Assembly (NCBI RefSeq): GCF_002838835.1
Contig: NZ_NHPP01000002.1
Coordinates: 1 to 64,000, forward strand
DNA from: Siphonobacter sp. SORGH_AS_0500
GTDB taxonomy: Bacteria > Bacteroidota > Bacteroidia > Cytophagales > Spirosomataceae
DNA length: 64,000 nt
Reading direction: 5' to 3'
Both the position numbers and the translations under genes were made by a program. Below the pieces are notes generated by a model. It was not told the DNA's origin and searched no databases. It saw nothing but the letters and a program-made list of their open reading frames with translations. This document shows, one piece after another, positions 1 through 14,368 of this stretch; within the stretch, counting starts at the first letter, position 1; every line of letters starts with the position of its first letter.

Positions 1-1
1 A

Positions 2-1678
2 AGTACGATCCTGGGTAAAAGCAGTGGGGGGGACAACTTTGGCATTGATCTGCGTTACGATCAGGTAAGTTCGGGAGCGACGGCTCAGAAAAACGGGAAT
101 ATTGCTCAGTTGCTCTGGAAGAAGAATGCCAATGACTGGACGGGTTTTAACTACACCTACGATGGAGCCGGTCGGCTGAAGACGGCGGTAGGGGTAGGGG
201 CCATTGGTTCCATCAAGGCGTATACGTATCGAGAGACGATATCCTCGTATGATCGCAATGGTAATATTAACGGCCTGAGTCGTTGGGGAGAAGGGAGTCA
301 GTGGGATGATCTCACGTATACTTATAGCGGTAACCGTTTAAGCAAGGTCTATGATGCTACTACGGGCAGTGATAAAGCGAAAGGCTTTGACAATGGCACT
401 ACCGTGAATAACACAGACTATAGTTATGATGCGGCAGGGAACTTGATTCAGGATGCCAACCGGGGCATTGCGGCTGAGGGGATCAAATACAACCTGTTGA
501 ATCTGATTGGGTCCATTCAGCTGGACAGCCTAATCACCTACGATTATGACGCTTCAGGAACCAAAGTAAGAATGACCCGAGGGGGCGTGTACCACACGCG
601 GTATGCAGGTCTTTTTGAATACGATGAAAATAATTTTCTAACGCGCATCGCTACGGAGGAAGGGCAGATCAGGGTGAGCAATGGCGGTAATAACTACGCC
701 GTGGAGTATTACCTCAAAGATCACCAGGGCAACGTGCGGGTGGTGCTGGATGAGAATGGGAATAAAGTACAGGAGACGGAGTACTTTGCTTTTGGGCTAG
801 CGATTCCGAAAACGATGGGCTCGAATAAGTATCTTTACAATGGCAAAGAGTTACAGCCGAAAACGGGTTTTCTGGATTATGGGGCTCGGCAGTATGATCC
901 TGCTATTGGACGATGGATGAGTATTGATCCTCTAAGTGAAAAATTTATATCTATATCACCGTTTAATTACGTTTCAAATAATCCAATTGTATTATTCGAT
1001 CCAGATGGAATGGATATTAAATCAACACATACTGATTTATATGGTAACATATTAGCTGTCTATAATGACGGCGACTTGGGCGTTTATACACACAAAGATG
1101 CTAATACTAAGGAAGATATAGACAAAAAGCACTCAAATAAAGATACTTCAGCAAAAGGGAAAAAAATGGGCGAGACGGCTTATTGGGATGAGTTCATTAT
1201 TCCAGGGACTAGTACAGCTGGTGGTAGAATTATATTCAATACCTCATGGGATGATCTTATTGATTGGGGTAATAACAGAGCTATTAACCAAGATTTAACA
1301 ATAACACAGAAGGAATCTAAACTTAAAGCTGAGTTAGACATAAAAAATAATAAAGCATGGACTACAGGCGATCCTCCGCAAATGACAGGAAGACTGCTAA
1401 ATGGTAAATATACCACTGCTAGATCAGCTGGCAACTATCTAGCTGGTATGAATGGTGTTATGGGAACTTTTCAAGGTCATCATATTAGTGGAGAAACCTA
1501 TATGAAGTTGGCCGGAGCTTATCAGCAAAGAAAATATAATAAACTTAACATTATTCAAATTATGCTAAATGGCAAAGCATTTGGAAAAGCTCCGTATTAT
1601 GGAGAAGAACCGTATTCAGGGCGTCGAATACTGGAAGGAATTAAGGAAGGATATAAACGATTAAATACAAAAAAATGA
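2..1678 (+). CDS. RHS repeat protein, C-terminal part with variable tip (5' end outside window)
   Basis: The reading frame is open from the first base, so the gene begins left of the window; a TTG at 110 is not the real start. The translation carries YD/RHS repeats (motifs such as YDAAGNL and YDYDASGTKV), then the RHS-associated core with the segments KDHQGNVRVV, YNGKELQ, LDYGARQYDPAIGRW and DPDG. In this family the core marks where a conserved shell meets a variable C-terminal tip that is often a toxin. Here the tip begins near base 940 and runs about 210 residues; its DNA is clearly more AT-rich than the core. It contains TTARSAGNYLAGMNG and GHHISGETY, resembling a tip I recall in other Bacteroidota RHS proteins, but its activity is not known to me. 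The stop overlaps the next gene by four bases (ATGA). RHS identity is secure; toxin function is inferred. Confidence 0.9.
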   Translation, partial: STILGKSSGGDNFGIDLRYDQVSSGATAQKNGNIAQLLWKKNANDWTGFNYTYDGAGRLKTAVGVGAIGSIKAYTYRETISSYDRNGNINGLSRWGEGSQWDDLTYTYSGNRLSKVYDATTGSDKAKGFDNGTTVNNTDYSYDAAGNLIQDANRGIAAEGIKYNLLNLIGSIQLDSLITYDYDASGTKVRMTRGGVYHTRYAGLFEYDENNFLTRIATEEGQIRVSNGGNNYAVEYYLKDHQGNVRVVLDENGNKVQETEYFAFGLAIPKTMGSNKYLYNGKELQPKTGFLDYGARQYDPAIGRWMSIDPLSEKFISISPFNYVSNNPIVLFDPDGMDIKSTHTDLYGNILAVYNDGDLGVYTHKDANTKEDIDKKHSNKDTSAKGKKMGETAYWDEFIIPGTSTAGGRIIFNTSWDDLIDWGNNRAINQDLTITQKESKLKAELDIKNNKAWTTGDPPQMTGRLLNGKYTTARSAGNYLAGMNGVMGTFQGHHISGETYMKLAGAYQQRKYNKLNIIQIMLNGKAFGKAPYYGEEPYSGRRILEGIKEGYKRLNTKK

Positions 1679-2127
1679 AAGCATGTGTAATGATTTTTGT
1701 GTTTTTATTAACAAGTTGTTTATCTGAAGGAGATAACTTCCAATCAAAGCAGCTTAAATCTACAAAAGGTGAAACTATTTATGTAAATACTGTAAACTGG
1801 GGTGTAACCAACGATTATCAGATGTCATGTATTTCAAACAACCCTAATAAGCTTAAAGATATAGCTGACTCTTCTTATACAGTTAGAGGGCTTGAACCAT
1901 TTTTATATTCATTTAAAAATGATACTCTTAACTTATTTTTTAAAGATAGTGTTAATTATAAGCTTTCAGACAAAACCAAGACAATTAAAGTTCTTTATCA
2001 TATTTTAAATAAAGACGAATATTATAAAATATATTCAAAGGCTTTAGTTAATGATGAGTTTTTTACTGTACCTGCTACCATAAACAAAGGTTATCCTAAA
2101 GATATGCCTTTACCAAAGTCTCACTAA
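1675..2127 (+). CDS. Small lipoprotein, candidate immunity partner of the RHS tip
   Basis: A 150-residue protein whose start codon overlaps the RHS stop codon (ATGA at 1675-1678), implying translational coupling. It opens with a short lipoprotein signal, MKACVMIFVFLLTSC, with the lipidated cysteine at residue 15, so it should sit in a membrane facing the periplasm. The rest is AT-rich, lysine- and asparagine-rich, with no domain I recognise. Its base composition matches the AT-rich RHS tip rather than the RHS core, which suggests tip and lipoprotein arrived as one unit. Position directly after a polymorphic tip is the classic place for an immunity gene; that role is inferred from context only. 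It could instead be an unrelated passenger lipoprotein. Confidence 0.7.
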   Translation: MKACVMIFVFLLTSCLSEGDNFQSKQLKSTKGETIYVNTVNWGVTNDYQMSCISNNPNKLKDIADSSYTVRGLEPFLYSFKNDTLNLFFKDSVNYKLSDKTKTIKVLYHILNKDEYYKIYSKALVNDEFFTVPATINKGYPKDMPLPKSH

Positions 2128-2186
2128 GGTAGCTTACTTCAGTATCTAAACTTTAATTCAACATTAGCAAATTAATCCATTGACCT

Positions 2187-2555
2187 ATGCGAATATATGT
2201 GTTTTTATGGTGGGCCTTCAGCCTGCTGAGCGGCACCTGCTTTGCCCAGATTCAGGGCAAAGTCTATCAGGATGGCAACGCCAGCGGTAACCAGGATGCC
2301 TTTGAAGCCGGCATTGCGGGCATTCGCATCGCGGCCTTCAATGCCCAATCCCAACTCATCGATCAGACCCGTACCGATGGGCAGGGATGGTATACTTTGT
2401 CGGTGACCGTGGGTCAGGCTGTATCTCTACGTTTTCTCGACGTACCCAAAGGGCTTAGCCCCAGCAAAGCTTCTCTTTTGAACCGCTTTCTGACGGCTCC
2501 GGCCCCCCCTGTTCCAAGTGTTCGTCCAAAGGACGCCACTTGGAACGAACGATAA
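2187..2555 (+). CDS. Exported SdrD-B-like domain protein, probably truncated
   Basis: 122 residues with a clear signal peptide (about residues 1-20, ending GTCFA) followed by one SdrD-B-like / carboxypeptidase-regulatory-like beta-sandwich repeat: IQGKVYQDGNASGNQDAFEA, then GIAGIRI and a TDGQGWYTL turn. Such domains normally occur as several repeats in large exported Bacteroidota proteins next to RHS genes, so one domain alone looks like a stub. The reading frame ends in a near-perfect hairpin (2511-2546) that supplies the last residues, so the natural C-terminus was probably lost there. GC-rich codon use matches the RHS core and not the AT-rich lipoprotein just upstream. Start ATG at 2187 is the only one giving the signal peptide. 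Confidence 0.6.
   Translation: MRIYVFLWWAFSLLSGTCFAQIQGKVYQDGNASGNQDAFEAGIAGIRIAAFNAQSQLIDQTRTDGQGWYTLSVTVGQAVSLRFLDVPKGLSPSKASLLNRFLTAPAPPVPSVRPKDATWNER
2511..2546. repeat. Near-perfect 36-base hairpin at the end of the SdrD-like stub
   Basis: GTTCCAAGTG at 2511-2520 pairs exactly with CACTTGGAAC at 2537-2546. Inside, CGTCC (2523-2527) and GGACG (2531-2535) pair around an AAA loop. No T-run follows on either strand close to the stem, so a terminator is not the best reading. It looks like an extragenic palindrome that interrupts the preceding gene. Confidence 0.7.
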
Positions 2556-2696
2556 AAAGGCAGTTTATAACTGCTGCCAGTTACAGACTGATAGTCATCC
2601 GTCGTTGTGAGTATTAAGTGGACCAATCTATTGATGGACAACATCCGATGAAATATAAAAAATAGTAATAATCTAAGAAAAAAAATTCCATTAGAC

Positions 2697-2925
2697 CATA
2701 TGCCTAAAACTAAAAATGTACCCCGAAGATTAGGAAGTTGACCTTAGTCTTGGGTTGAGTCCAATTCCAATCGAAAGGCTGGAAAAAGCGTAACCCATTC
2801 ATTCGTCAACCTAACCTAATTATTGAGGTAAATCATACCATGAAAATATCTTTATTAATAAGCCTTTTAACGATTGCTGGTGGGTCTTTATCTGGGGGTA
2901 TATGAGGATGTCAATGGTCAGTTCG
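2697..2925 (+). repeat. Degenerate direct repeat, copy A
   Basis: This stretch matches 5315-5552 at low but unmistakable identity, offset about 2616-2618 bases. Shared landmarks in order are an RHS C-terminal scrap (ATGCCTAAAACTAAA here, ATGCCAAAAACAAAA there), CTTAGTCTT, GAAAAAAGCG-like, CATTCGTC, AGGTAAATCAT, a start codon, TAATAAGCCTTTTAACGAT, and an out-of-frame VYED coding segment. The two copies flank the RHS half-gene at 3029-5365. Confidence 0.75.
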
Positions 2926-2987
2926 ATTACTTTGATCCTGATAAAATAGGCATAGTTATTAAAGCCTTATCAATTCAAATAACGTAA
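2697..2987 (+). pseudogene. Remnants: RHS end and frameshifted SdrD-like leader
   Basis: Two gene scraps lie here. First, bases 2697-2741 encode HMPKTKNVPRRLGS then a stop, a decayed version of the C-terminus YMPKTKEVSEDYGANP of the RHS gene at 3029-5365. Second, an ATG at 2840 opens a signal-peptide-like sequence MKISLLISLLTIAGG that stops after 21 residues; one frame over, the sequence continues VYEDVNGQFDYFDPDKIGI to a stop at 2987, an SdrD-B-like domain start. The frames would have to be joined to give a working protein. The rest of 2556-3028 is AT-rich with no further gene visible. Confidence 0.6.
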
Positions 2988-3028
2988 AAAGGTTTTTGCT
3001 ATTCAAGAGTTAGTAAAACGTAAATACT

Positions 3029-5365
3029 ATGCGATTAAAATACTTTTTGATCATCCTTTCATTGATTCAGGCCTTAAATTCTTTTTCTCAAAAGCCTGAG
3101 GTAATTCCTCCGTCCCCTAACGTGGCAAGTTTTGCAAAGTATGGAGACATTCCCGTTAACTTAAGCACTGGGCAGGTGGGCTTGCAAATTCCCATTTATA
3201 CGATTCAGGAGAAAGGATTGACCTGGCCCCTATACCTATCGTATTCCTATACGGGCTATCGTCCTTCTGAAGAAGCCAGCTGGGTTGGCAGAGGTTGGGC
3301 TTTCTCTACCGGTACAGTAAGTAGGACCATACGGGGCTTGCGGGATGAAGCCCTAAATGACGGTTACCTATCTACATATTCGATTGTAAAAAGCATTGTT
3401 GATCTGCATCAAAACAATGCGAGTAACCAGGCTTTTTTGAAAACCGTAGCATCGGGAGCTAAAGATGCTGAACCTGATCTTTTTTCATTTTCGTTTGGAT
3501 CATACAGCGGCAAATTCAGTTTTGGTTCTGATGGACTAATACATATTAGTTCAAACCTCCCCTTAAAAATAACCTATGAAATTGCCACTCAGCCTTTAGA
3601 CGCTACCTACTCCGCCATTGGCAGATCTATTATCAAATGGATTTTTACGGTTGAAAACGGAACTCAGTATATCTTTTCAGACGCCGAATATGGGTGGAGT
3701 GAATCTCCTCAAGGGGCTTATAATATCAAAAATAGTAAGTCTATTACTTCTTGGCATATTTCCAAGGTAATAGATATAACAGGTAATGCTGTTAATTTTT
3801 CCTATACTACTCCCTCTGACACCTACAAGCGAGTACAATGTAGTTATACACAAAGGAAAATTTTACCGGTTCCCGCTTGCGTATCCAGTCTGGATTATGA
3901 TGGTATACAGTTTAACTATTCTGCGGAACGATATCTTTCATCCATAGAAAGCTCTACTGTAAAAATTAGTTTTAATTCTATTCTTCAGAGCAAACCGCTC
4001 AATGGAAGTACTAGTTACTTTCGAAAACTCAAGGCCATACAAATTACCTCTAACATAGGCACTAGTATACCTATCAAAAATTTTAGTTTTGATTATGATT
4101 CTGAAGGTCTAGACTTGTTAACAACCTTTCAGGAAAGTGGAGCAAATCCATATATATTCTCATATGAATCATTGAATAAGCTTGGAACAACCAGAGCTGT
4201 TGACTACTGGGGGTATTACAATGGTCCCGAACAAAATAGTTTGATTACTTACGGGGAAATTGTTTCTAATCGAGAGCCCTCTTATTACCATACTCTCATG
4301 GGATCGCTAAACAAGGTTCAATACCCAACGGGAGGATCATCAAGTTTTGAATATGAGCTTAATACCGCTAGTTATAAACAAGCTGCAGTTAGTCCACGAA
4401 CTAGAACCCTTTATAGAGGTAAAGTATTTGAGTGGACTTATAATGGCCAAAGTCTAAACGTAAATAGTAGTAATAACTTTAGTTTATCTGTCGCAACGAA
4501 CTGTAAAATAACGTATTCATTGCGAGACAAAAATGGCAACAACCTTAGTATGTATCAAAGTTGTCAGGGTTTACCTAATTCTGATGTACTTTCCGCTGGT
4601 AATTATACAGCAGAAAACTTTATGAATAAGCATTGTCAGCTAGCTCCATTTAATACGGGGGATGTACTTACGGCTACGGTTACGCTTATTACTACAGTAA
4701 CTGATTTGATTTCTAATGTCGGCGGTCTGAGAATTAAAAAAATTACAGATTACGTAGGAGACACTACCGTAGCTAAAGTGAAAGAGTATAAATATAATAG
4801 ATTCGATTCTAATAACCTATCTAGTGGAGCCGTAGCTGACTGGCCGGATAACCATTATGTAACTACGTTAAGTTCTGATTGTTATGCAGCTTACCAAGTA
4901 GATGTATGGAAGTCGGAACCAATTAACTCAATGGCAGTGACACCTATTTTATATTCTAACGTAGAAGAACGAACAGGTGATAGAGTTAATTATTATACTT
5001 TTTTAAGTTACGAAAATGGTTATCCTGATTATTATGGATATACCCTGTTTGATTCCTCAGATGACCCTATTCGGGAATCTACAGCTGGACCCACAGAAAG
5101 CTACGAGTTTGCTCGTGGATTTAATACCTCTACTGTAACCAAGAATACAGCCGGGACTACATTATTTAAGACAACATATACCTACCCTACGGATAAAAAT
5201 ATAGCAACACTTTACCGAGCTCCAGGTATTTACATTGAAAATATAACGGGGTCAGGTGGTAATGAATTCACAATAGATGGGTTTAATTCCAAAGCCTACA
5301 AAGTGCCATTAGGCTATATGCCAAAAACAAAAGAAGTCTCCGAAGACTATGGAGCCAATCCTTAG
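3029..5365 (+). CDS. RHS/YD-type protein, amino-terminal half only
   Basis: 778 residues with a signal peptide (residues 1-20, ending NSFSQ) and the typical Bacteroidota RHS amino-terminal region: PPSPNVASFAKYGDIPVNLS, then a long beta-rich shell with WVGRGWAF and VDYWGYYNG motifs. It ends YMPKTKEVSEDYGANP, where an intact family member would continue into the YD repeats and core. No YD-repeat array, core or tip is present, so this is half of a large protein. Its last bases lie inside the direct-repeat copy B, which suggests recombination removed the distal half. AT content is moderately high. The other half is not adjacent: the RHS 3' part at 2-1678 lies upstream, in the wrong order. Whether the half protein is made is unknown. 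Confidence 0.8.
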   Translation: MRLKYFLIILSLIQALNSFSQKPEVIPPSPNVASFAKYGDIPVNLSTGQVGLQIPIYTIQEKGLTWPLYLSYSYTGYRPSEEASWVGRGWAFSTGTVSRTIRGLRDEALNDGYLSTYSIVKSIVDLHQNNASNQAFLKTVASGAKDAEPDLFSFSFGSYSGKFSFGSDGLIHISSNLPLKITYEIATQPLDATYSAIGRSIIKWIFTVENGTQYIFSDAEYGWSESPQGAYNIKNSKSITSWHISKVIDITGNAVNFSYTTPSDTYKRVQCSYTQRKILPVPACVSSLDYDGIQFNYSAERYLSSIESSTVKISFNSILQSKPLNGSTSYFRKLKAIQITSNIGTSIPIKNFSFDYDSEGLDLLTTFQESGANPYIFSYESLNKLGTTRAVDYWGYYNGPEQNSLITYGEIVSNREPSYYHTLMGSLNKVQYPTGGSSSFEYELNTASYKQAAVSPRTRTLYRGKVFEWTYNGQSLNVNSSNNFSLSVATNCKITYSLRDKNGNNLSMYQSCQGLPNSDVLSAGNYTAENFMNKHCQLAPFNTGDVLTATVTLITTVTDLISNVGGLRIKKITDYVGDTTVAKVKEYKYNRFDSNNLSSGAVADWPDNHYVTTLSSDCYAAYQVDVWKSEPINSMAVTPILYSNVEERTGDRVNYYTFLSYENGYPDYYGYTLFDSSDDPIRESTAGPTESYEFARGFNTSTVTKNTAGTTLFKTTYTYPTDKNIATLYRAPGIYIENITGSGGNEFTIDGFNSKAYKVPLGYMPKTKEVSEDYGANP

Positions 5366-5552
5366 TCTTCGGGTTGAGGCTTGTTTCCATCGAAAAGATT
5401 GAAAAAAGCGTGGCTCATCCATTCGTCTACCTAACTATCCAAGGTAAATCATCTTATGAAAGAACCTGTACTAATAAGCCTTTTAACGATCGCGAGCGGT
5501 TCTTTAGTCAGCTCAGGTGAGTGGCTGGGTGTATGAAGATATCAATGCCAAT
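5315..5552 (+). repeat. Degenerate direct repeat, copy B
   Basis: Partner of copy A at 2697-2925. It covers the last 17 codons of the RHS half-gene, about 90 bases of spacer, and the frameshifted SdrD-like leader. The best conserved block is TAATAAGCCTTTTAACGAT (5472-5490 here, 2856-2874 in copy A). Confidence 0.75.
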
Positions 5553-5810
5553 GGATACCTTCGAGTCGGGCAAAGTGGTTATCTTAGTCAAATCTACAGT
5601 TTAAGTCAGGAGTGCGGGCAGCCCCAGTTAATGACTCAAACCTGTAGTAATGAGCAGGGCTACTACCAGCTTTCTTCCTTTCTGTTCGCATGGTCTCTGG
5701 TGGACATATTCGTGGTCTGTCTATCGGGATTTGTTATAAAGACTTTAGTAGTTAAAAAATCCTTAGAGCGTTCACGTCTAACTAGAACTATTCTCTCCCT
5801 TTCATTTTAA
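5456..5810 (+). pseudogene. Frameshifted SdrD-B-like leader fragment
   Basis: An ATG at 5456 gives MKEPVLISLLTIASGSLVSS and stops after 26 codons, while the adjoining frame (open from a GTG at 5517) continues as SGWVYEDINANGYLRVGQSG and later CSNEQGYYQLSS, which is the SdrD-B-like consensus. After that the sequence turns into unrelated hydrophobic residues and stops at 5810. It is therefore frameshifted near 5520 and truncated after about 50 domain residues. It is the better preserved of the two frameshifted leaders, and should be read as a broken gene rather than a 97-residue protein. Confidence 0.6.
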
Positions 5811-5841
5811 ACTTATCAATATCTAAATACCATAAAAACAG

Positions 5842-5870
5842 ACGAGGCTTGAAAAAACTTCAAGCCTCGT
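5842..5870 (-). terminator. Terminator of ndk
   Basis: Eleven-base perfect stem, ACGAGGCTTGA with TCAAGCCTCGT, seven-base loop. On the minus strand it follows the ndk stop by about 20 bases and is followed by a short T-run. Confidence 0.8.
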
Positions 5871-5889
5871 TCAGATAAGAGAAAATTAC

Positions 5890-6309
5890 TTAATACTGTT
5901 CGGTCTGAGCAAAGAAGAAATTAGACTCAATTTCAGCGTTTTCATCTGAGTCAGATCCATGGATCGCATTGGCTTCCATCGATTTTGCAAATAATTTCCG
6001 GATGGTGCCTTCTTCTGCATTGGCAGGATTGGTGGCTCCAATCAGTTTACGGAAGTCAGCTACGGCGTTGTCTTTTTCCAGAATGATCGGAACGATAGGG
6101 CCAGAAGACATATACGCACACAAATCATTATAAAAAGGACGCTCGGCATGTACGGCATAGAACTTGCCCGCCAGCTCTTTCGTCAGCAGTGTTTTCTTCA
6201 AAGCAACAATACGAAATCCAGCTTCTTCAATTAGCTTGATGATTGCTCCGGTGTGACCATCGGCTGTGGCGTCAGGTTTAATCATCGTAAAGGTGCGGTT
6301 CTGTGCCAT
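5890..6309 (-). CDS. ndk: Nucleoside diphosphate kinase
   Basis: Transfers the terminal phosphate of ATP to other NDPs through a phosphohistidine, balancing cytosolic nucleotide pools. From [14 protein letters not shown] the protein is 139 residues, the usual length; the frame is open nine codons further upstream, but that extension is not family-like. The nucleotide-binding start TFTMIKPDA and the active-site segment [12 protein letters not shown] with catalytic His117 are intact. It stands alone on the minus strand with its own terminator and ends the housekeeping side of the RHS region. Confidence 0.97.
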
Positions 6310-6477
6310 ACTATTGAACAGGGTTAAAGAATTCAATTTAAAGTGATGATGAAAAGAAGGGTAGATTCACGACCTGAAAAGCCTTGAATTTTACCATTAT
6401 GGCCGCAATTTAGGGATACATTTTTACCAGAAGGCTAACCTCCGCAGAAATGCAAAGGTTTTTGAACTGTTTTTCAA

Positions 6478-6485
6478 TAACTTTG
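6478..6485 (+). promoter_or_regulatory. Candidate -7 box for the nrnA-like gene
   Basis: TAACTTTG fits the Bacteroidota -7 consensus TAnnTTTG. A TTTG lies only 13 bases upstream (6461-6464), shorter than the usual spacing, so support is moderate. It would give a leader of about 160 bases. The rest of the 6310-6655 gap shows no gene. Confidence 0.4.
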
Positions 6486-6655
6486 CCCGCCCAATAGACG
6501 GAAGACTTAGCAAAATGCGTTTGATAAAGAATTGATTCACAGAATATTGCTGGATCAAATCGCTTCTTTCCTACGGTATGGGGATTCACGAACAGTAATC
6601 TTTACAAGCTGAAAACAAGCCTATGGGCTGTTTCAGTAAAGACTACGACTAAAAA

Positions 6656-7693
6656 ATGAACGAATTGAGTATGAATCAGGATGCGTTGCAGGCTTTACAG
6701 ACTTTGGTCGACACGCCACAACGGGTAGTTATCACCACTCATTATAATCCCGATGCCGACGCACTGGGTTCTTCGTTAGGCTGGGCTGGTTATCTGAAAA
6801 AGAAAGGGCATACGGTTAAGGTAATCACTCCGTCAGAGTCGCCGCGATTTCTTTCCTGGATGTCGGGTAATGAAGATGTTATTGAGTTTAGTCACCGAAA
6901 CGCGGCCCTGGCGGCTCAGACCGTAGCGGCGGCAGACGTAATTTTTTGTCTGGACTTCAATGCTCTGGCTCGTTTGCACGATCTGGAGGCCATTATTCGC
7001 AATGCTACGGCTCCTAAGGTAATGATAGACCATCACTACCATCCCGAAGATTTTGCCATCATCGCTATTTCTGAACCCACCGCAGCGGCAACGGCTCAGA
7101 TGATTTACCAGATCATTGGTGAACTGGGTGGAAAAGATCTGCTGGACGTAAGCATTGGCGAATGCTTATACGCCGGTTTGATGACGGATACGGGTTCGTT
7201 TCGCCACCCCAGCACTAATCCAGCCGTTCACCGGATGGCTGCGGAGTTGATCGAGTTAGGCGTAAACACGAATCGCATTCACCGCCTGATTTTCGATAAC
7301 AACTCCCTGACCCGAATGCAGTTTCTGGGGTATGTATTATCGCAAAAATTAATCGTATTACCTGAATACAAAGCAGCTTACGTTGCCCTGACGAACGAAG
7401 AGCTTAAACGCTTCAATTCCCAAACGGGCGATACGGAAGGGGTAGTTAACTATATCCTTTCGATTGAAAACGTAGTAATGGCTGTATTACTTATCGAACG
7501 GGATCGGGAGGTTAAGTTATCATTCCGCTCCGTGGGCGACGTATTTGTGAATGAATTTGCCCGGAAGCATTTCAACGGTGGCGGACACCGCAATGCCGCT
7601 GGCGGACGTAGTCAGGATTCTCTGGAGGGAACGGTTAATCGATTGGTTTCCCTATTACCTGAAATTAAAGACCAGTTAGATCGGGAAATCTAA
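6656..7693 (+). CDS. nrnA: DHH/DHHA1 phosphoesterase, NrnA type (nanoRNase / pAp phosphatase)
   Basis: 345 residues. The DHH domain shows HYNPDADALGSS (residues 29-40), CLDFN with Asp100, the signature DHH at 125-127 and MTDTGSF with Asp178, together the two-metal active site. The DHHA1 substrate-binding domain ends with GGGHRNAAGG (308-317). Family members degrade short RNA oligonucleotides (2-5 nt), and many also remove the 3' phosphate of pAp. Length and domain order match NrnA rather than RecJ or the longer c-di-AMP enzyme GdpP. A start at the internal Met6 is possible. It precedes two FKBP lipoproteins, but those appear to have their own promoter. Confidence 0.92.
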   Translation: MNELSMNQDALQALQTLVDTPQRVVITTHYNPDADALGSSLGWAGYLKKKGHTVKVITPSESPRFLSWMSGNEDVIEFSHRNAALAAQTVAAADVIFCLDFNALARLHDLEAIIRNATAPKVMIDHHYHPEDFAIIAISEPTAAATAQMIYQIIGELGGKDLLDVSIGECLYAGLMTDTGSFRHPSTNPAVHRMAAELIELGVNTNRIHRLIFDNNSLTRMQFLGYVLSQKLIVLPEYKAAYVALTNEELKRFNSQTGDTEGVVNYILSIENVVMAVLLIERDREVKLSFRSVGDVFVNEFARKHFNGGGHRNAAGGRSQDSLEGTVNRLVSLLPEIKDQLDREI

Positions 7694-7747
7694 CCAGTCT
7701 ACCCCTGGCGGAGTTGAGGCTTTTTTTCTCCATTGTCTTCAATTCCG

Positions 7748-7755
7748 TACTTTTG
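7748..7755 (+). promoter_or_regulatory. Candidate -7 box for the first FKBP lipoprotein
   Basis: TACTTTTG matches TAnnTTTG and lies 30 bases before the chosen ATG at 7786, inside the upstream extension of the open frame that starts at 7714. This supports the later start codon. No convincing -33 TTTG at 17-23 bases. Confidence 0.5.
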
Positions 7756-7785
7756 TTTTTAAACTCTGAAATAGAATTAATTCTC

Positions 7786-8658
7786 ATGCAAAAAAAACTC
7801 TGGATGCTGCCGGTTCTGGCTGCCACCACCCTGTGGTCCTGTAACCAATTTAAGGTCAGCGTCGCTGAAAATGGAGTAAAATACCAATTTCACGAACACG
7901 ATGAAAAAGGTAAAGTAGCGAAAGATGGCGAAGTAATGACGTTCAACATGGTCGTGAAAACGGCTAGTGACTCTATCCTTCGCGATTCTCAAAAAGAAGG
8001 CCAGCCTTTGGTAATGCTGGCTCAGAAAGGCCCCTACAAAGGCAGTTTTGAAGATGGCATGAAAATGCTCGCTGCTGGTGACAGTGCTACGTTCTATATC
8101 AGCGTGGACTCACTCTTCCGTGGAGCAAGTATGCAGGCTCCACCTCCATTTGCAAAACCCGGAACTGATTTTAAATTTCAGGTAAAGCTGCTGAAAATCG
8201 AAACCCAGGAAGCATTCCAGAAACGTGCCGAAGCCGAACGTGCGGCTCGTCCGAAGAAAGAAGAAGCGGATATTGCTGCTTACCTGGCAAAAAATAACCT
8301 TAAAAACGCGGTGAAGTTACCTTCAGGAGTGCAGTACGCCGTAACAACTCCCGGAACGGGCGTGGCTCCTGCCAAAGGTGATACGGTGAAAGTGTTCTAC
8401 GCGGGTAAATTATTAAGCGGAAAAATCTTTGACGAAAACCACAAAGAAGGCTTAACCTTCCCCGTGGGTGTGGGTCAGATGATTCCCGGTTTTGATGAGG
8501 CCGTTCAAAACCTGAAAAAAGGCGAAAAAGCTACCATCCTGATTCCGTCAGCTCATGGATATGGCGAGCAGGGTTCTCCCGGAGCCATTCCTCCCAACTC
8601 TGTCCTGGTATTCGACGTACAATTAATTGACATTAAAAAGGGTAAATTACCTGTTTAG
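7786..8658 (+). CDS. FKBP-type peptidyl-prolyl isomerase lipoprotein
   Basis: From MQKKLWMLPVL the protein is 290 residues and starts with a lipoprotein signal, lipid cysteine at residue 19 (LWSC). The frame opens earlier at 7714, but that extension would bury the signal and crosses a promoter box. The C-terminal half is a complete FKBP domain: GVQYAVTTPGTG, GDTVKVFYAGKL, FPVGVGQMIPGFDEAV, ATILIPSAHGYGE, AIPPNSVLVFDVQL. The preceding ~100 residues look like a second, degenerate FKBP-like domain without most binding-pocket residues. Such proteins isomerise proline bonds and act as periplasm-side chaperones; GldI-type FKBPs of gliding Bacteroidota are relatives, but I cannot assign that role. 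Confidence 0.92.
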   Translation: MQKKLWMLPVLAATTLWSCNQFKVSVAENGVKYQFHEHDEKGKVAKDGEVMTFNMVVKTASDSILRDSQKEGQPLVMLAQKGPYKGSFEDGMKMLAAGDSATFYISVDSLFRGASMQAPPPFAKPGTDFKFQVKLLKIETQEAFQKRAEAERAARPKKEEADIAAYLAKNNLKNAVKLPSGVQYAVTTPGTGVAPAKGDTVKVFYAGKLLSGKIFDENHKEGLTFPVGVGQMIPGFDEAVQNLKKGEKATILIPSAHGYGEQGSPGAIPPNSVLVFDVQLIDIKKGKLPV

Positions 8659-8706
8659 TCACTGAATTTCGATTTTTCGACGAAACTTTTCAGGAATCTT
8701 CCAACC

Positions 8707-8731
8707 GAAAGACACCGCTTTGGTGTCTTTC
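8707..8731 (+). terminator. Hairpin between the two FKBP genes
   Basis: Ten-base perfect stem GAAAGACACC with GGTGTCTTTC around GCTTT. There is no clean T-run behind it, so it may be a weak terminator or an RNA-processing hairpin in a two-gene transcript. Confidence 0.5.
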
Positions 8732-8759
8732 ATCGTTTACTAACAAAAATTGTGTCGCA

Positions 8760-9638
8760 ATGAAATTCTATCTCCCTTTCGTATTGGCAGGAGCAAGTTT
8801 ATTAGCAGGTTGCAAAGGAATTAACAATGAGGCCTCTGAGAAGCTTGATGAAAATGATAAACAAATTCAAGCTTATATCGCAAGTAACAATTTAGCTCCA
8901 ACAAAGTCGCCTTCTGGTTTATATTATCAGTTAAAAAATACAATTCCTACCGCAAGGGCTCCTAAGGAAGCAGAACTGGTATCCTATACACGTGTAATTT
9001 CTCAATTAAACAACAAAGTAGTTGGTGATACTACCAACAAAATTTTCAAAGGCTATTTCGGTTACACGACTGGACCCTTAGCTGTCCACGAGGGCTTGTC
9101 TTACATGAAGGAAGGTGAGTCTAGCGTCCTTTTATCTCCTTACTCCATTGCGTTTGGAATGGATGCTATTAAAGATACGCTGGGTAACGTTCTTTTACCG
9201 GCTTATGCTCCCGTTCGGTTTGATCTTAAGCTTATAAAAACCCGTAATGAATCCGAACAGATTCAGGATTACATTGCAGAAAACAAGCTACAGGTGACAG
9301 GATCAACGACTGATAACCTGAATTACATCCGATTGAAAGAGGGAACAGGCTCTACTATCGCCGCAGGTAAAGCGGTAGTGGTGAAATATGTAGGAAAGCT
9401 TGTAACGGGTGCTGTGTTTGATAAAAGCGATTCTTTTTCCTTTACGGTAGGAGTAACTAGTTTGGTAAGTGGATTTACCCAAGGGGTACAAAAAATGAAA
9501 GTAGGAGAGAAAGCAATCATCATCTTCCCTTCTGCCTTGGGTTACGGTGTGAATGGCCGAAGAGATGGGTATGGCCAATACGTCATTTACCCAAGTGTTC
9601 CATTAATATTCGAATTAGAGGTATTATCCGCTAATTAG
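8760..9638 (+). CDS. Second FKBP-type peptidyl-prolyl isomerase lipoprotein
   Basis: 292 residues, paralogue of the gene just upstream. Lipoprotein signal MKFYLPFVLAGASLLAGC with the lipid cysteine at 18. The C-terminal FKBP domain is recognisable from ITVGV-like core residues: AGKAVVVKYVGKLVTGAVFD, FTVGVTSLVSGFTQGVQKMK, AIIIFPSALGYGVNG and PLIFELEVL. The middle domain is again FKBP-like but worn. Codon use is more AT-rich than in the first copy, so the pair has diverged for a long time. Likely an outer-membrane or periplasm-facing folding factor; substrate unknown. Confidence 0.88.
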   Translation: MKFYLPFVLAGASLLAGCKGINNEASEKLDENDKQIQAYIASNNLAPTKSPSGLYYQLKNTIPTARAPKEAELVSYTRVISQLNNKVVGDTTNKIFKGYFGYTTGPLAVHEGLSYMKEGESSVLLSPYSIAFGMDAIKDTLGNVLLPAYAPVRFDLKLIKTRNESEQIQDYIAENKLQVTGSTTDNLNYIRLKEGTGSTIAAGKAVVVKYVGKLVTGAVFDKSDSFSFTVGVTSLVSGFTQGVQKMKVGEKAIIIFPSALGYGVNGRRDGYGQYVIYPSVPLIFELEVLSAN

Positions 9639-9652
9639 CATTATGATTGATT

Positions 9653-9698
9653 AAAAAAAGGAAACCCCGACCTGAGCAGGTCGGGGTTTCCTTTTTTT
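9653..9698. terminator. Strong bidirectional terminator
   Basis: A 21-base perfect stem centred on GAGC (9674-9677), with an A-run on one side and a T-run on the other. It sits between two convergent genes and overlaps the stop codon of the minus-strand gene. Confidence 0.92.
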
Positions 9699-10896
9699 AA
9701 TTGAATTTTCTTCGAACAATTTCATAAAAATCGTCGGCCTCGTCGGCTACGTCCCGCCATTTGTATTGAGGAGCATAAACCCGATTCATCAAATCCTTGG
9801 CCTGATCAAAGCTCTGGGCTTTTTCCAGTTCATCAATGGCCTGATGGTAGGCGGTAGCGTCACCTTTAAAAAGCTGATTGATGAAAATGAATTTATGGTT
9901 CAGCGAAATGAAGCTATGAATGCTGGAAATGGGTCTATGCTGATACTGACTGCCCAGCGTTTCTGCTGGTTTTTCTTCCTTCAGTTTTTCATTAAGCATC
10001 GTCGGCTGCATCGAAAATTGATCGTTTACGCTGGCCGTCACGTCTTCGGCCGGGGTAATGGCCGGGGCCGTTGGAATTGCAGCGTAATCGGGAGCGGGCA
10101 GTGCCGTTTCCGGAGCTGAAGTAGTCGAAATGCTGGAGGCAATAGAGTCAGGGCTGGATTCCGTACGGCTAATACCAGAAGTCGCTATGTAGTATTCATC
10201 CTTCGAAGGTGAAGACCCCGCTGTCGTTACTTCCACCTGATCAAAAAAGCTTTGATCCGATTCGGCTGGAATTTCTTTTTCGTACAACGATTGCTCATCA
10301 ACGGGAAGGGTAGAAGCAAAAAGATCAAGGGTTGCCGGAATAGAATCCAGACGGCTGGCATCGGCGGTTAACTCCTGTACCCATTCAATGGCCCGTGCAG
10401 TATAAACGGCAGAATCGTTACCCAGCCGTTCGCTGAGGCCGCTGATAACTCCCTTGTGAAGTCGGTTATATTTTTGAAAAGCTTTCAGGTTTTCGGCTGT
10501 CAATCGAAAGTCAGGTAACTCACGTAACCAGCCTTCCAGGTATTCCTGCGGAGCCAGCAGAAACTCCAGACTTTCGTGTGTAGCCTTGGCCAGCAGTGGC
10601 TCCAGGTCTTTTTGCAGAACGGAAATATGCTTGGAAACAGTATTAAGAAAACTTTGCAGGGCCTTTTTTACTTCCTCACTTTCGAAATTGAAATAAGGAC
10701 TACGGAAAGCCGTTGCGGTCTCTTTCCAGACGTCGTACAGATCCCGAACGACAAACAGGTTCACTTGGGAAACCGGGCTTAACCGCAGGAGGGTATCTCC
10801 GTCAATCCGATCCCGATGAGCATACTGCTCTTTACAAAGCTGTGCCGCATACGCTTTAGCGTAGGTTTCAATGGCGGCAACGTCTAACTTCGGCAT
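9697..10896 (-). CDS. Conserved protein of unknown function with a low-complexity linker
   Basis: 399 residues, no signal peptide or membrane segment, so probably cytosolic. Residues 1-190 are mostly helical (LCKEQYAHRDRIDGDTLLRL and following). Residues about 200-310 are a Ser/Ala/Pro/Glu-rich linker. The last 75 residues form a compact segment beginning ISSIHSFISLNHKFIFINQL and ending FYEIVRRKFN, which recalls a C-terminal element I have seen in several Bacteroidota proteins of unknown function. No catalytic motif is visible. The three-part plan (helical domain, flexible linker, short C-terminal module) suggests an adaptor or regulator, but that is a guess. Convergent with the FKBP gene and separated from htrA by a terminator. 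Confidence 0.8.
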   Translation of the reverse strand: MPKLDVAAIETYAKAYAAQLCKEQYAHRDRIDGDTLLRLSPVSQVNLFVVRDLYDVWKETATAFRSPYFNFESEEVKKALQSFLNTVSKHISVLQKDLEPLLAKATHESLEFLLAPQEYLEGWLRELPDFRLTAENLKAFQKYNRLHKGVISGLSERLGNDSAVYTARAIEWVQELTADASRLDSIPATLDLFASTLPVDEQSLYEKEIPAESDQSFFDQVEVTTAGSSPSKDEYYIATSGISRTESSPDSIASSISTTSAPETALPAPDYAAIPTAPAITPAEDVTASVNDQFSMQPTMLNEKLKEEKPAETLGSQYQHRPISSIHSFISLNHKFIFINQLFKGDATAYHQAIDELEKAQSFDQAKDLMNRVYAPQYKWRDVADEADDFYEIVRRKFN

Positions 10897-11003
10897 AAGG
10901 CTTTTACTGTTTTCTCTTCGAGGTAAAACGAAATATTCAATGTAAAAAGTAAGTATCTAAGGTAATTAAGTACGGAAAGTAATGTTTAGAAATCTAGAGA
11001 AAC

Positions 11004-11035
11004 AAAAAATCCCCGTCAAATGACGAGGATTTTTT
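11004..11035 (-). terminator. Terminator of htrA
   Basis: AAAAAATCC, CGTCA, short loop, TGACG, GGATTTTTT with one unpaired base on each side; lies 18 bases after the htrA stop on the minus strand. Confidence 0.8.
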
Positions 11036-11052
11036 AAATTTTTAATGATTGA

Positions 11053-12576
11053 TTAGCGTAAAGTGCCATCAATGCGGTACTGTTGTCCACTGGAAGGATC
11101 AATACCAATGATCCGTACGCGACCTCTGCGGTTCGCCAGCAGATCTCCGGCTTGTTTGGCATCCTTCACGGCCGTATCATCAATTTTCGTGATAATAAAG
11201 CCAACGGGAACTTCCTGATATTCCATCCAGCCATCTGGCAGAACTTCTACGACTTTCGCTCCTCCGTTAATCCGGAATTTCGCTTTTTCGTTAGAGTTCA
11301 CGTTATCCAGTTTCGCACCGATGGATTCTACCTGAACTAATGAAGTCACAGGGGATTTCACAATACCGGTGTTACCTTCCATGTTTTTCAGGGTAACGTT
11401 GAAGTCTTTCAACTGACCGTCGCGGTTAACCGTTACCACTACCACGTCACCGGGTTTGTGCTGAGCACCTACCAGTTCAACCAGACGAGGCAGGTCACGC
11501 ACTTCTTTACCGTCAATTTTAACAATTACGTCACCAATTTTCAGACCCGCAGCTTTGGCGGCACTGGCGTTGGCGTTTTCACCGAAACTACCGAAGTAGA
11601 TACCGGAAGTGGCTTTCAGATCTTTCTGAGCGGCAAATTTTTCATCCACGGCTTGCATCTGAGAGATACCCAGGAAACCACGCTGAACATTACCGTATTT
11701 CAGCAGATCGCTGGCGACACGTTTCACCAGGTTCGAAGGAACGGCGAAGGAGTAACCTACATACGTTCCCGATTGACCACCGGCAATGGCCGTGTTGATA
11801 CCAATCAGATCGCCTTTCGAATTGACAAGAGCACCACCGGAGTTACCAGGGTTTACGGCTGCATCCGTTTGAATAAAGGCTTCAATCGGGCTTTGAGCTT
11901 TGTCACGATCACCAATGATACCAATCGAACGACCTTTGGCACTAACAATACCAGCCGTTACAGTTGACTCCAGATCGAAGGGGTTACCTACGGCCAGTAC
12001 CCATTCTCCTACTTTAATATCGTCAGAGTTGGCAAAGGGCAGGTAAGGCAGGTTGTTAGGGATTTTATCACCCTGCAACTGAATAACGGCAATGTCCGTG
12101 TTAGGGTCCGTACCGATCAGTTTTGCTTTGTAGGTGCGTTTATCGCTTAATACGACTTCCAGTTCGGAAGCATCGGCTACCACGTGGTTATTGGTGACAA
12201 TGTATCCATCAGGGCTGATAATTACCCCAGAACCCGAAGAAATACCTTCCTGACGCTGCGGACGACGGCTACCTCCGCCGAAATCTTCATCACCGAAGAA
12301 ATCGAAGAAGCTAGGCATCTGCCGCTGGCTTACCTGCCGAACGACTTTCGATTTAATATGCACTACCGCGGGCGTTGATTTATCCGCAGCTGAAACGAAA
12401 TCACCGGGAATGCCGGCCATGTTCGTTGTGAACTTCGCGTTTGATCCTGAAGAGCTCGCCTCTGTGAAAATCACATCGCGACTCGATCCTAATCCTAATA
12501 AGTGGGCTCCTCCAAGGGTGATGCCGCTACTCAAAACCCCTACAAGGGCTAGAGATTTCCAATTGCTGTTATTCAT
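11053..12576 (-). CDS. htrA: DegP/HtrA-type periplasmic serine protease
   Basis: 507 residues with an amino-terminal hydrophobic anchor or uncleaved signal (residues about 8-30). The trypsin-like domain has the triad His131 (VTNNHVV), Asp161 (DPNTDIAV) and Ser246 (NPGNSGGAL). A loop rich in Phe/Asp/Gly (about 88-103) matches the regulatory LA-loop region of DegP. Two PDZ domains follow, the first around GIYFGSFGENANASAAKAAG, the second near VVEVLPDGW. It degrades or refolds misfolded envelope proteins. Length and two PDZ domains fit the DegQ/DegP class. Monocistronic by its own terminator. Confidence 0.95.
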   Translation of the reverse strand: MNNSNWKSLALVGVLSSGITLGGAHLLGLGSSRDVIFTEASSSGSNAKFTTNMAGIPGDFVSAADKSTPAVVHIKSKVVRQVSQRQMPSFFDFFGDEDFGGGSRRPQRQEGISSGSGVIISPDGYIVTNNHVVADASELEVVLSDKRTYKAKLIGTDPNTDIAVIQLQGDKIPNNLPYLPFANSDDIKVGEWVLAVGNPFDLESTVTAGIVSAKGRSIGIIGDRDKAQSPIEAFIQTDAAVNPGNSGGALVNSKGDLIGINTAIAGGQSGTYVGYSFAVPSNLVKRVASDLLKYGNVQRGFLGISQMQAVDEKFAAQKDLKATSGIYFGSFGENANASAAKAAGLKIGDVIVKIDGKEVRDLPRLVELVGAQHKPGDVVVVTVNRDGQLKDFNVTLKNMEGNTGIVKSPVTSLVQVESIGAKLDNVNSNEKAKFRINGGAKVVEVLPDGWMEYQEVPVGFIITKIDDTAVKDAKQAGDLLANRRGRVRIIGIDPSSGQQYRIDGTLR

Positions 12577-12790
12577 AGCTGTTAAACGTTGTTTGGAGAG
12601 GGAAATTCAAAAAATTTAGTTGAGTAACAGTGCTCCAAATCGATTCAACAAAAGTTTATACCAAAGTTTTGTAAGTACTTAGACTTGCTAACCTTAACGC
12701 AGTTAGAGAAAATCTGTTGCGAAATTAGCGGCTTTAAGCTTTTTTAACAACAGAATGTGATGATAGGGGAATTGCAGGGCTGAAAGTTAA

Positions 12791-12826
12791 AAAAGCAGAG
12801 AGAATTATCAAACTCTCTCTGCTTTT
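12791..12826 (-). terminator. Terminator of hsp20
   Basis: Thirteen-base perfect stem AAAAGCAGAGAGA with TCTCTCTGCTTTT, ten-base loop, 29 bases past the hsp20 stop. Confidence 0.85.
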
Positions 12827-12854
12827 CCTCACAATCCAACGGCACCATTTAGGG

Positions 12855-13292
12855 TTAGGCAATGGAAATTTCGCGGGGCTGAACTTTCGCTTCTTCTTTT
12901 TTAGGAAGCGTAATGTTCAGAATTCCATCGGTATAAGAAGCTTCGATTTTTTCGCCATCTACCGTTTTGGGTAACATGAACGAACGTTGGAAGCTGCTGT
13001 AGCTGAATTCCTTCCGGCTGTATTTTTCGGTAGTTTCTTCGTTAGAACTTTCCTTTTTCACCGAAATCGACAGACGATTTTCGTGTACGCTGATTTTGAA
13101 ATCTTCTTTTTTCAGACCGGGAGCGGCCAGTTCAATCTGAAAAGCACCTTCTACTTCTTTCACATTGACCGCAGGCAACGAATGAAACTCATCTTTCGTA
13201 GCTACGCCGTTGTAAGTCTTGAAAAAGTCGTCGTTAAAAAAACGATTAACTAAAGAAGGAAAAGCAGGTTGATTGAATTTAACGAGTGTCAT
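12855..13292 (-). CDS. Small heat-shock protein, Hsp20 / alpha-crystallin family
   Basis: 145 residues. After a short amino-terminal region with FNDDFF, the alpha-crystallin domain spans about residues 35-130: LPAVNVKEVEGAFQIELAAP, GLKKEDFKISV, then SFMLPKTVDGEKIEASY and DGILNITLPKK. The C-terminal REISIA contains the I-x-I tail motif that docks onto neighbouring subunits. ATP-independent holdase that binds unfolding proteins in the cytosol. The 180-base upstream region has repeated TGACAAAATG boxes and a small CCGAC/GTCGG dyad, pointing to dedicated stress regulation. Confidence 0.95.
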   Translation of the reverse strand: MTLVKFNQPAFPSLVNRFFNDDFFKTYNGVATKDEFHSLPAVNVKEVEGAFQIELAAPGLKKEDFKISVHENRLSISVKKESSNEETTEKYSRKEFSYSSFQRSFMLPKTVDGEKIEASYTDGILNITLPKKEEAKVQPREISIA

Positions 13293-13394
13293 GGCTATTC
13301 TTACGTTTTATTGTTTTCGATAGTAACCGACGTATAAATTGTCGGACGCTCTACTTATTTAAACACTTGTGCCGAACGTAAAAAAAGTATTTAT

Positions 13395-13474
13395 AATGAC
13401 AAAATGACTTAAATTTTGGTGATCTATATTTTTATTAATGACAAAATGTCTCAAACTGCATTAAAAATGTCATT
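13395..13474 (-). promoter_or_regulatory. Repeated TGACAAAATG boxes upstream of hsp20
   Basis: AATGACAAAATGACTTAAA (13395-13413) and AATGACAAAATGTCTCAAA (13437-13455) differ at two of 19 bases and start exactly 42 bases apart, about four helix turns. The second copy holds the dyad GACA-AAA-TGTC. A third element, TGTCATT (13468-13474), is the reverse complement of AATGACA. Likely binding sites of a regulator of hsp20; they also lie just past the mnmD stop. The regulator is unknown. Confidence 0.55.
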
Positions 13475-14200
13475 TCATTGAAGAATAGCCCGAACAACCT
13501 CCCGCTTTCGTCCCGGTCCTGGATGTTTTTCAATGCGAAAACCAGCCGCTTGTAAGGCCCGCCGAACATCTCCTTTCGAGCAATAGGTTGTTAATACGCT
13601 GCCCGCATGTAATCGCTGAGCTAAACCTGCAAAGATTTCAGGTGTCCACAACTCAGGCTGGGAGTTAGGGGCGAAGGCGTCGTAATAAACCAAATCGTAA
13701 GGTTCGTCCTGAACCTGTTTCTGAATAAAATCCTGAATGGTTGTATGTAATTTGTAAAGCGTAAAATTCGGCTGGATCGTCACCGCTTCGTTCCAGGGAG
13801 CCTGATGAAGCGTTTGCAAGGCCGCCGAATGCATAAAGTCATCGTAATTCAGCTTTTGATATTCTTCTGCACTAACCGGATACGCCTCCAGACTGGTATA
13901 ATGCACCGGAATGTTTTCTTCCTGAGCTTTTAATAAGGTTAGTAAGGCATTAAAGCCAGTACCAAAGCCCATTTCCAGAATGCGTAACGAGCTTTTACCA
14001 GAGGCTTTCATATAATCGAAACCCAATTCCAGAAAAATGCGGCGAGATTCTTCAAATGCCCCGGAAACGGAATGATACCATTGATTAAATCGAGCGGAGT
14101 ATAACGTATGGCTCCCATCTTTAGTCACGACCAATTCATTCGAAAATGCTGGATTTTCCTTAGCGTCCTCTTCATTCTTCCAAGTTCTTTCGTTCATCAT
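13475..14200 (-). CDS. mnmD: tRNA 5-methylaminomethyl-2-thiouridine methyltransferase, stand-alone MnmD
   Basis: 241 residues. Carries the MnmC amino-terminal (MnmD) methyltransferase fold: SARFNQWYHSVSGAFEES, the SAM-binding loop ILEMGFGTGFNALLTL, and the catalytic-site stretch YDAFAPNSQPELWTPEIF. It methylates nm5s2U to mnm5s2U at wobble position 34 of certain tRNAs. The FAD-dependent oxidase half found in enterobacterial MnmC is absent, as in many bacteria with a separate MnmD. Start at Met1 or Met2 cannot be told apart. It is divergent from uxaB, with only about 70 bases to the open frame there. Confidence 0.92.
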   Translation of the reverse strand: MMNERTWKNEEDAKENPAFSNELVVTKDGSHTLYSARFNQWYHSVSGAFEESRRIFLELGFDYMKASGKSSLRILEMGFGTGFNALLTLLKAQEENIPVHYTSLEAYPVSAEEYQKLNYDDFMHSAALQTLHQAPWNEAVTIQPNFTLYKLHTTIQDFIQKQVQDEPYDLVYYDAFAPNSQPELWTPEIFAGLAQRLHAGSVLTTYCSKGDVRRALQAAGFRIEKHPGPGRKREVVRAILQ

Positions 14201-14368
14201 TTCTTTTTCTTCAGGGTGTTCTACAGTTTCGCCCGTCCTTTTTATAATTGATCGACGTTTAACAGCTACTTTTTGAATGGATTAAAAGCAGGACAGTGGC
14301 AGCGTGGGTTTTCCCCAACTGATCTTTTGTCCGGTCTTTCACCCAAAACTTATCATAACTACTCCGTC

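What the first reader, a model, noticed from the sequence alone, without database searches (positions are those of the whole stretch)
2697..5552. An RHS half-gene flanked by two decayed copies of the same RHS-end/SdrD-leader junction
Copies A and B share the last codons of an RHS half, the spacer, the start codon, and a frameshifted SdrD-like leader. Between them lies an RHS amino-terminal half that stops exactly in copy B. This looks like the footprint of repeated unequal recombination in an RHS cassette array, with silent halves kept as donors or debris.
Basis: partly seen in the sequence, partly recalled or inferred. Interest (0 to 1): 0.62.

Follow-up and report, generated by a model that had tools for sequence, protein, structure and literature searches.

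The report
Wreckage of a tandem RHS-toxin operon
Next to one apparently intact bacterial toxin gene lie broken leftovers of neighbouring copies of the same toxin operon; this is ordinary birth-and-decay of competition genes, with one odd twist, that the surviving half-gene ends at the same internal point as two distant relatives do.

Summary
Copies A (about 2655-2990) and B (about 5299-5680) align at 75% identity over about 200 nt, and a 778-aa RHS amino-terminal gene (3029-5365) ends inside B. Relatives explain the anatomy. In this family (probably Spirosomaceae) RHS toxins are multi-gene operons: [SdrD_B protein with a type IX sorting tail] - [RHS N-half] - [RHS C-half carrying core and toxin] - [immunity]. 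In sister species G004 the SdrD leader found in A and B is the start of the C-half gene. So A and B are N-half/C-half gene junctions of two different units. In both, the body of the C-half, its toxin and its immunity gene are gone; A has also lost its N-half. A third leader (2187-2504) is the head of the separate SdrD protein gene, cut by a dispersed palindromic repeat. The cluster is the eroded remains of two to three tandem units beside one apparently intact C-half/immunity pair. The debris consists of 5' heads, not the 3' toxin tails of classical Rhs orphan arrays, so donor cassettes are unlikely. Unexplained: the N-half lacks about 270 residues and stops at the same column as two divergent short N-halves in another genus.

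The parts
2..1678 (+). RHS C-half: YD repeats, RHS core (about residues 261-337), then a C-terminal putative toxin domain; 5' part lies beyond the contig end
   Evidence: window = C22 from base 1; TIGR03696 E 1.3e-18; 78% identical to G004:C215, 58% to G001:C13
1675..2127 (+). Probable cognate immunity gene (150-aa lipoprotein-like), start overlaps the toxin stop by 4 nt
   Evidence: position and overlap; no family match; function inferred
2187..2504 (+). Leader2: 5' head (signal peptide and SdrD_B domain) of the separate SdrD/T9SS protein gene, truncated
   Evidence: PF17210 E 9e-9; 83% aa identity to the 587-aa SdrD gene of G004; intact homologues carry T9SS sorting tails
2505..2575 (.). Dispersed palindromic repeat interrupting leader2
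   Evidence: 16 copies in G005, 4 in G004, 1 here; hairpin -33 kcal/mol
2655..2744 (+). Copy A, part 1: last codons of another RHS N-half gene (upstream body lost)
   Evidence: tblastn of the N-half C-terminus, E 1e-5; DNA alignment
2745..2839 (+). Copy A, part 2: N-half/C-half intergenic spacer
2840..2990 (+). Copy A, part 3: 5' head of an RHS C-half gene (leader1 signal peptide and start of SdrD domain), frameshifted, body lost
   Evidence: two-piece match to leader1 of G004, E 5e-4; that leader precedes an RHS C-half in G004
3029..5365 (+). RHS N-half gene (SpvB/TcB-like), 778 aa, intact ORF with signal peptide, lacks about 270 C-terminal residues present in relatives
5299..5365 (+). Copy B, part 1: end of that N-half gene, homologous to copy A part 1
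5366..5455 (+). Copy B, part 2: intergenic spacer; a 10-bp perfect inverted repeat straddles the stop codon (about 5341-5373)
5456..5680 (+). Copy B, part 3: leader1 head of a second RHS C-half gene, frameshifted, body lost
   Evidence: 62% identity over 58 aa to G004 leader1, E 9e-15
5834..7693 (.). Right boundary: conserved flank starting at the ndk terminator (ndk 5890-6336 on - strand, then DHH phosphoesterase)
   Evidence: blastn against G001-G005 syntenic loci

Best explanation
The region is the eroded remainder of a tandem array of multi-gene RHS polymorphic-toxin operons. One unit was: SdrD_B protein with a type IX sorting tail; secreted RHS N-half (SpvB/TcB-like, first part of the toxin shell); RHS C-half with its own SdrD leader, RHS core and C-terminal toxin (TcC-like); immunity gene. 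Copies A and B are the N-half/C-half gene junctions of two such units. Shown: their homology, their identity as gene junctions (from sister species), loss of the C-half bodies, the interrupted SdrD gene, and that the cluster occupies a site that is closed in five related species. Inferred: that the units arose by tandem duplication, then lost toxin and immunity parts by illegitimate deletions and repeat insertions once the copies were redundant. Also inferred: that the C-half/immunity pair at the contig end is the only unit still likely to work, as a surface-delivered antibacterial toxin whose RHS shell encloses the toxin. The 778-aa N-half is either a surviving partner for that C-half or a not-yet-broken relic.
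For: Operon order in relatives: G001:C13 SdrD(T9SS)-N-half-C-half; G001:C7 C-half-immunity-SdrD(T9SS)-N-half; Dyadobacter N-half-C-half-immunity; fused N+C proteins of 2100-2460 aa in others. Sister G004:C181 has leader1 at the head of an RHS C-half with AHH nuclease, then immunity, then the SdrD gene ending in an N-half start motif; that C-half is itself broken by the same repeat. A/B homology is far above chance. No other N-half or C-half in the genome; a second truncated leader2 behind a small gene on C27. ndk and a HupE-like gene are close neighbours in G001-G005 but separated here. An independent case of the proposed process: in the single-contig genome G074 a 10.7-kb RHS operon is duplicated at 98.7% identity and one copy is already frameshifted. 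Foldseek matches of the N-half model are RHS shells and the SpvB N-domain.
Against: The contig ends inside the cluster, so the number of units and the state of the first C-half are unknown. A and B differ at 25% of sites, so the duplication is old or the pieces came separately. No intact unit with leader1, short N-half and C-half together has been seen. The N-half ORF is unbroken over 2.3 kb although its flanks are decayed. Antibacterial function and immunity are inferred from gene order only.
Confidence: 0.8

Rival explanations
1. The N-half gene is functional: its short form is a natural variant (N1 module) that works with the C-half at the contig end, and only the flanking pieces are debris.
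For: Intact 778-aa ORF with signal peptide between decayed pieces. Two other short N-halves (719 and 772 aa, G010:C20), only 25-33% identical to it and 26% to each other, end at the same column, Dyadobacter residue 808-811, in three alignment modes. In G010 the missing part is carried by the preceding gene, behind what looks like its own signal peptide. Copy A ends at the same point, so the short form was inherited through a duplication.
Against: About 50 other uncut N-halves in Bacteroidota are at least 981 aa and nearly all keep the missing module. No copy of that module in the window or in about 1.35 Mb sampled around all contig ends. Only one of the three short forms is seen directly followed by a C-half.
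Confidence: 0.3
2. One reading: a recombination-active cassette array, in which silent halves are kept as donors that can be recombined into an expressed gene.
For: Repeated junctions A and B in direct orientation 2.6 kb apart could recombine; Rhs loci are known recombination hotspots and orphan tails can be switched on (PMC3967940).
Against: Remaining pieces are 5' heads lacking core and toxin; recombination between A and B at 75% identity would only delete the N-half; no variation in cassette number could be observed in relatives.
Confidence: 0.1
3. Independent horizontal acquisitions of unlike RHS operon fragments at one insertion hotspot rather than tandem duplication.
For: N-half G+C 38% and third-position G+C 31%, against 55% in leader2 and 46% in the rest of the window; N-half has no close homologue in the genus; site occupied only in this species.
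Against: A and B share homologous N-half end, spacer and leader1, and the sister species has the same leader1/leader2 families in the same order.
Confidence: 0.2
4. Assembly or sequencing artefact (chimeric contig, indel errors).
For: Draft genome, 31 contigs, 4.9% contamination estimate, contig end inside the cluster.
Against: A and B differ by 25%, so they are not a collapsed or doubled read; whole gene bodies are missing; sister species G004 carries the same gene families, also broken; a second remnant lies on another contig.
Confidence: 0.05

Closest known systems
Two-gene RHS polymorphic toxins of Bacteroidota (N-half gene + DUF6443/RHS C-half gene + immunity)
   Same: Gene content, order and homology to Dyadobacter, G001 and G010 loci
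   Different: Here decayed; C-half had its own SdrD_B leader; N-half lacks the last about 270 residues
Tc toxin BC component (TcB/TcC; YenB/YenC2, TcdB2-TccC3)
   Same: Split of the RHS shell into a SpvB-type N-half and a toxin-bearing C-half; Foldseek matches to 4igl, 4o9x, 6p0x
   Different: No TcA sought or seen; secreted proteins with signal peptides and a T9SS partner; short N-half
Rhs/CDI orphan toxin arrays (C-terminal displacement; PMC3967940, PMC8125069)
   Same: RHS locus with broken extra pieces downstream of a main gene
   Different: Orphans there are 3' ends with toxin and immunity; here the leftovers are 5' heads without toxin

Membership tests
RHS/YD-repeat toxin proteins | RHS core domain followed by variable C-terminal domain and downstream immunity gene | tested here: met
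   C-half 2-1678: TIGR03696 E 1.3e-18; following overlapping ORF 1675-2127
RHS/YD-repeat toxin proteins | N-half belongs to the RHS shell family | tested here: met
   778-aa ORF aligned over full length to N-halves at about 30-36% identity; best Foldseek hits are all RHS shells, E about 1e-9, but the model has pLDDT 64
Tc toxins | TcA partner encoded nearby | not tested
   No search for TcA was made
Tc toxins | B and C subunits as separate genes forming one shell | tested here: inconclusive
   Separate N-half and C-half genes in relatives; assembly into one shell not testable here
Rhs orphan array (C-terminal displacement) | Displaced 3' core-toxin fragments with immunity genes downstream of main gene | tested here: not met
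   2128-5833 holds N-half and leader heads only; tblastn with C-halves found only the ORF at 2-1675
T9SS-exported proteins | C-terminal sorting domain on the SdrD protein | tested here: inconclusive
   Present in intact homologues (PF18962/TIGR04183); window copy is cut long before that point
Antibacterial toxin | Toxin kills cells lacking the immunity gene | not testable with these tools
   Needs experiment

The most novel reading that the evidence does not exclude
The RHS N-half has a real internal seam about 270 residues before its usual end. Some operons encode the two sides as separate secreted proteins (as G010:C20 appears to: second part, then first part, then C-half), so RHS shells can be built from three chains. 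The window's 778-aa gene would be such a first-part protein.
Probability: 0.2. Interest if true: 0.5.

Novelty: new member of a known kind. Interest (0 to 1): 0.3.

Why it matters
It shows how multi-gene RHS toxin operons of Bacteroidota duplicate and die, leaving 5' heads rather than the toxin tails described in Proteobacteria. It also flags a recurrent end point inside the RHS N-half that may be a true domain seam of the toxin shell.

Tried and rejected
Sequence error: rejected, whole gene bodies are missing. A/B as mobile or regulatory elements: only two copies in the genome, both at RHS junctions. Hairpin at the N-half end as cause of the recurrent end point: absent in the other two short N-halves. 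Short N-halves as a group: of the short uncut ones examined, two are simple frameshift pseudogenes (L165, L166) and one (L168) ends elsewhere. Search for the missing N-half module in the window and around all contig ends: none, with working positive controls. Search for an overlapping contig to extend the C-half: none. PDB sequence search with the N-half: no hit. Papers on DUF6443: none held.

Full report
Check of the observation. The window is G000:C22:1-64000 and starts at the contig's first base. Copies A and B are homologous over the end of an RHS half, a spacer, a start codon and a leader: 75% identity over about 200 nt, local score 149 against 20 +/- 2.4 in 300 dinucleotide shuffles. They are the only such sites in the genome. 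Between them is an unbroken 778-aa ORF, 3029-5365, whose stop codon lies in copy B. Both leaders are frameshifted SdrD_B domains: A has 2840 in one frame and 2898-2966 in another; B has 5456 in one and 5511-5675 in another.

What the pieces are. In five or more related loci the gene order is SdrD_B protein with a type IX sorting tail (or a kelch-like protein), RHS N-half, RHS C-half with core and toxin, immunity gene, in whole or in part; in others N- and C-half are one 2100-2460 aa protein. In sister species G004 (97% identical DHH protein) contig C181 carries: immunity-like gene; leader1 (SdrD_B) followed by an RHS C-half with an AHH nuclease toxin; immunity-like gene; an SdrD_B protein gene whose 587-aa frame ends in an N-half start motif (VPPSPPSANSL). 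Leader1 of G004 is the relative of the A and B leaders (62% over 58 aa for B). The G004 SdrD protein is the relative of the window's third leader at 2187-2504 (83% over 106 aa). Hence A and B are junctions between an N-half gene and the following C-half gene. The C-half bodies, toxins and immunity genes that should follow are absent after both (tblastn with C-halves finds only the ORF at 2-1675).

How it came about. The most economical history is a tandem array of such units beside the C-half/immunity pair at 2-2127, eroded by deletions (leader1 joined straight to the upstream region of the next N-half at about 2990; N-half tail joined to foreign sequence at about 2655) and by insertion of a dispersed palindromic repeat into the SdrD gene at 2505. 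The same repeat occurs 16 times in G005 and four times in G004, two of them in its RHS array. Another truncated leader2 behind a small gene lies on contig C27. The insertion site is clean: ndk and a HupE-like gene are close neighbours in G001-G005, while here homology to those genomes starts at 5834 and the HupE-like gene is not found. Duplication followed by decay is seen directly in G074, a single-contig genome, where a 10.7-kb RHS operon is present twice at 98.7% identity and one copy is already frameshifted. The duplication step for the window itself is inferred.

The N-half. Relatives' uncut N-halves are nearly all at least 981 aa; the window gene lacks the last about 270 residues. Of the other short ones examined, two are frameshift pseudogenes and one ends elsewhere. 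The remaining two (L117 719 aa, L164 772 aa, both G010:C20) stop at the same column as the window gene, residues 808-811 of the Dyadobacter protein, in three alignment modes, despite 25-33% identity. In L117 the missing module is at the start of the gene before the short N-half, behind what looks like its own signal peptide, and an RHS C-half follows the short N-half. Copy A ends at the same point, so the short form predates the A/B split. This may be chance in a small sample, a deletion hotspot or a true seam of the shell; the comparison was made after the fact. A predicted model (pLDDT 64, pTM 0.66) matches RHS shells and the SpvB N-domain but is too weak to place the seam.

Comparison with known systems. 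It works like, and is a decayed member of, RHS polymorphic toxin operons; the B/C split resembles Tc toxins, for which fused B-C genes are also reported (PMC7861908). It does not fit the Rhs orphan-array pattern, where displaced 3' toxin fragments accumulate downstream and can be re-expressed by recombination (PMC3967940; PMC8125069): here only 5' heads remain.

Limits. The genome is a draft; the cluster runs off the contig; the family name is a guess from its relatives; toxin and immunity roles are inferred from position. About 1.35 Mb including all contig ends was searched for the missing module and for a continuation of the C-half without success; the rest of the genome was not searched for the module.

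Noticed in passing
2505-2575; copies in G005 and G004: Dispersed 66-71 bp palindromic repeat (REP-like), 16 copies in G005, 4 in G004, 1 in this genome; in G004 two copies lie in an RHS array.
   Followed up: partly
L117 (G010:C20) 1-14436, - strand: RHS operon in which the N-half appears split into two secreted proteins in swapped order (2565-aa gene starting with the last N-half module, then 719-aa first part, then C-half).
   Followed up: partly
L116 and L121 (G074:C1, 2.66 and 3.68 Mb): 10.7-kb RHS operon duplicated at 98.7% identity, one copy frameshifted, with an IS3-type transposase-like ORF nearby.
   Followed up: partly
L059 6850-9700 (G000:C27): Small-gene plus truncated SdrD leader remnant flanked by two copies of another repeat (CTCTGGCCGATGG...GGCCAGAGG).
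   Followed up: no
window 5341-5373 and 2722-2755: Hairpin straddling the N-half stop codon in both copies (-23.2 kcal/mol in B, -13.3 in A); 10-bp perfect arms in B only.
   Followed up: partly
window 5834-6336: HupE-like membrane protein gene next to ndk in G001-G005 was not found in this genome.
   Followed up: partly
L122 (G125:C1), L168 (G068), G141:C3, G111:C1: Classical runs of orphan C-terminal RHS fragments downstream of full C-halves look common in this family.
   Followed up: no
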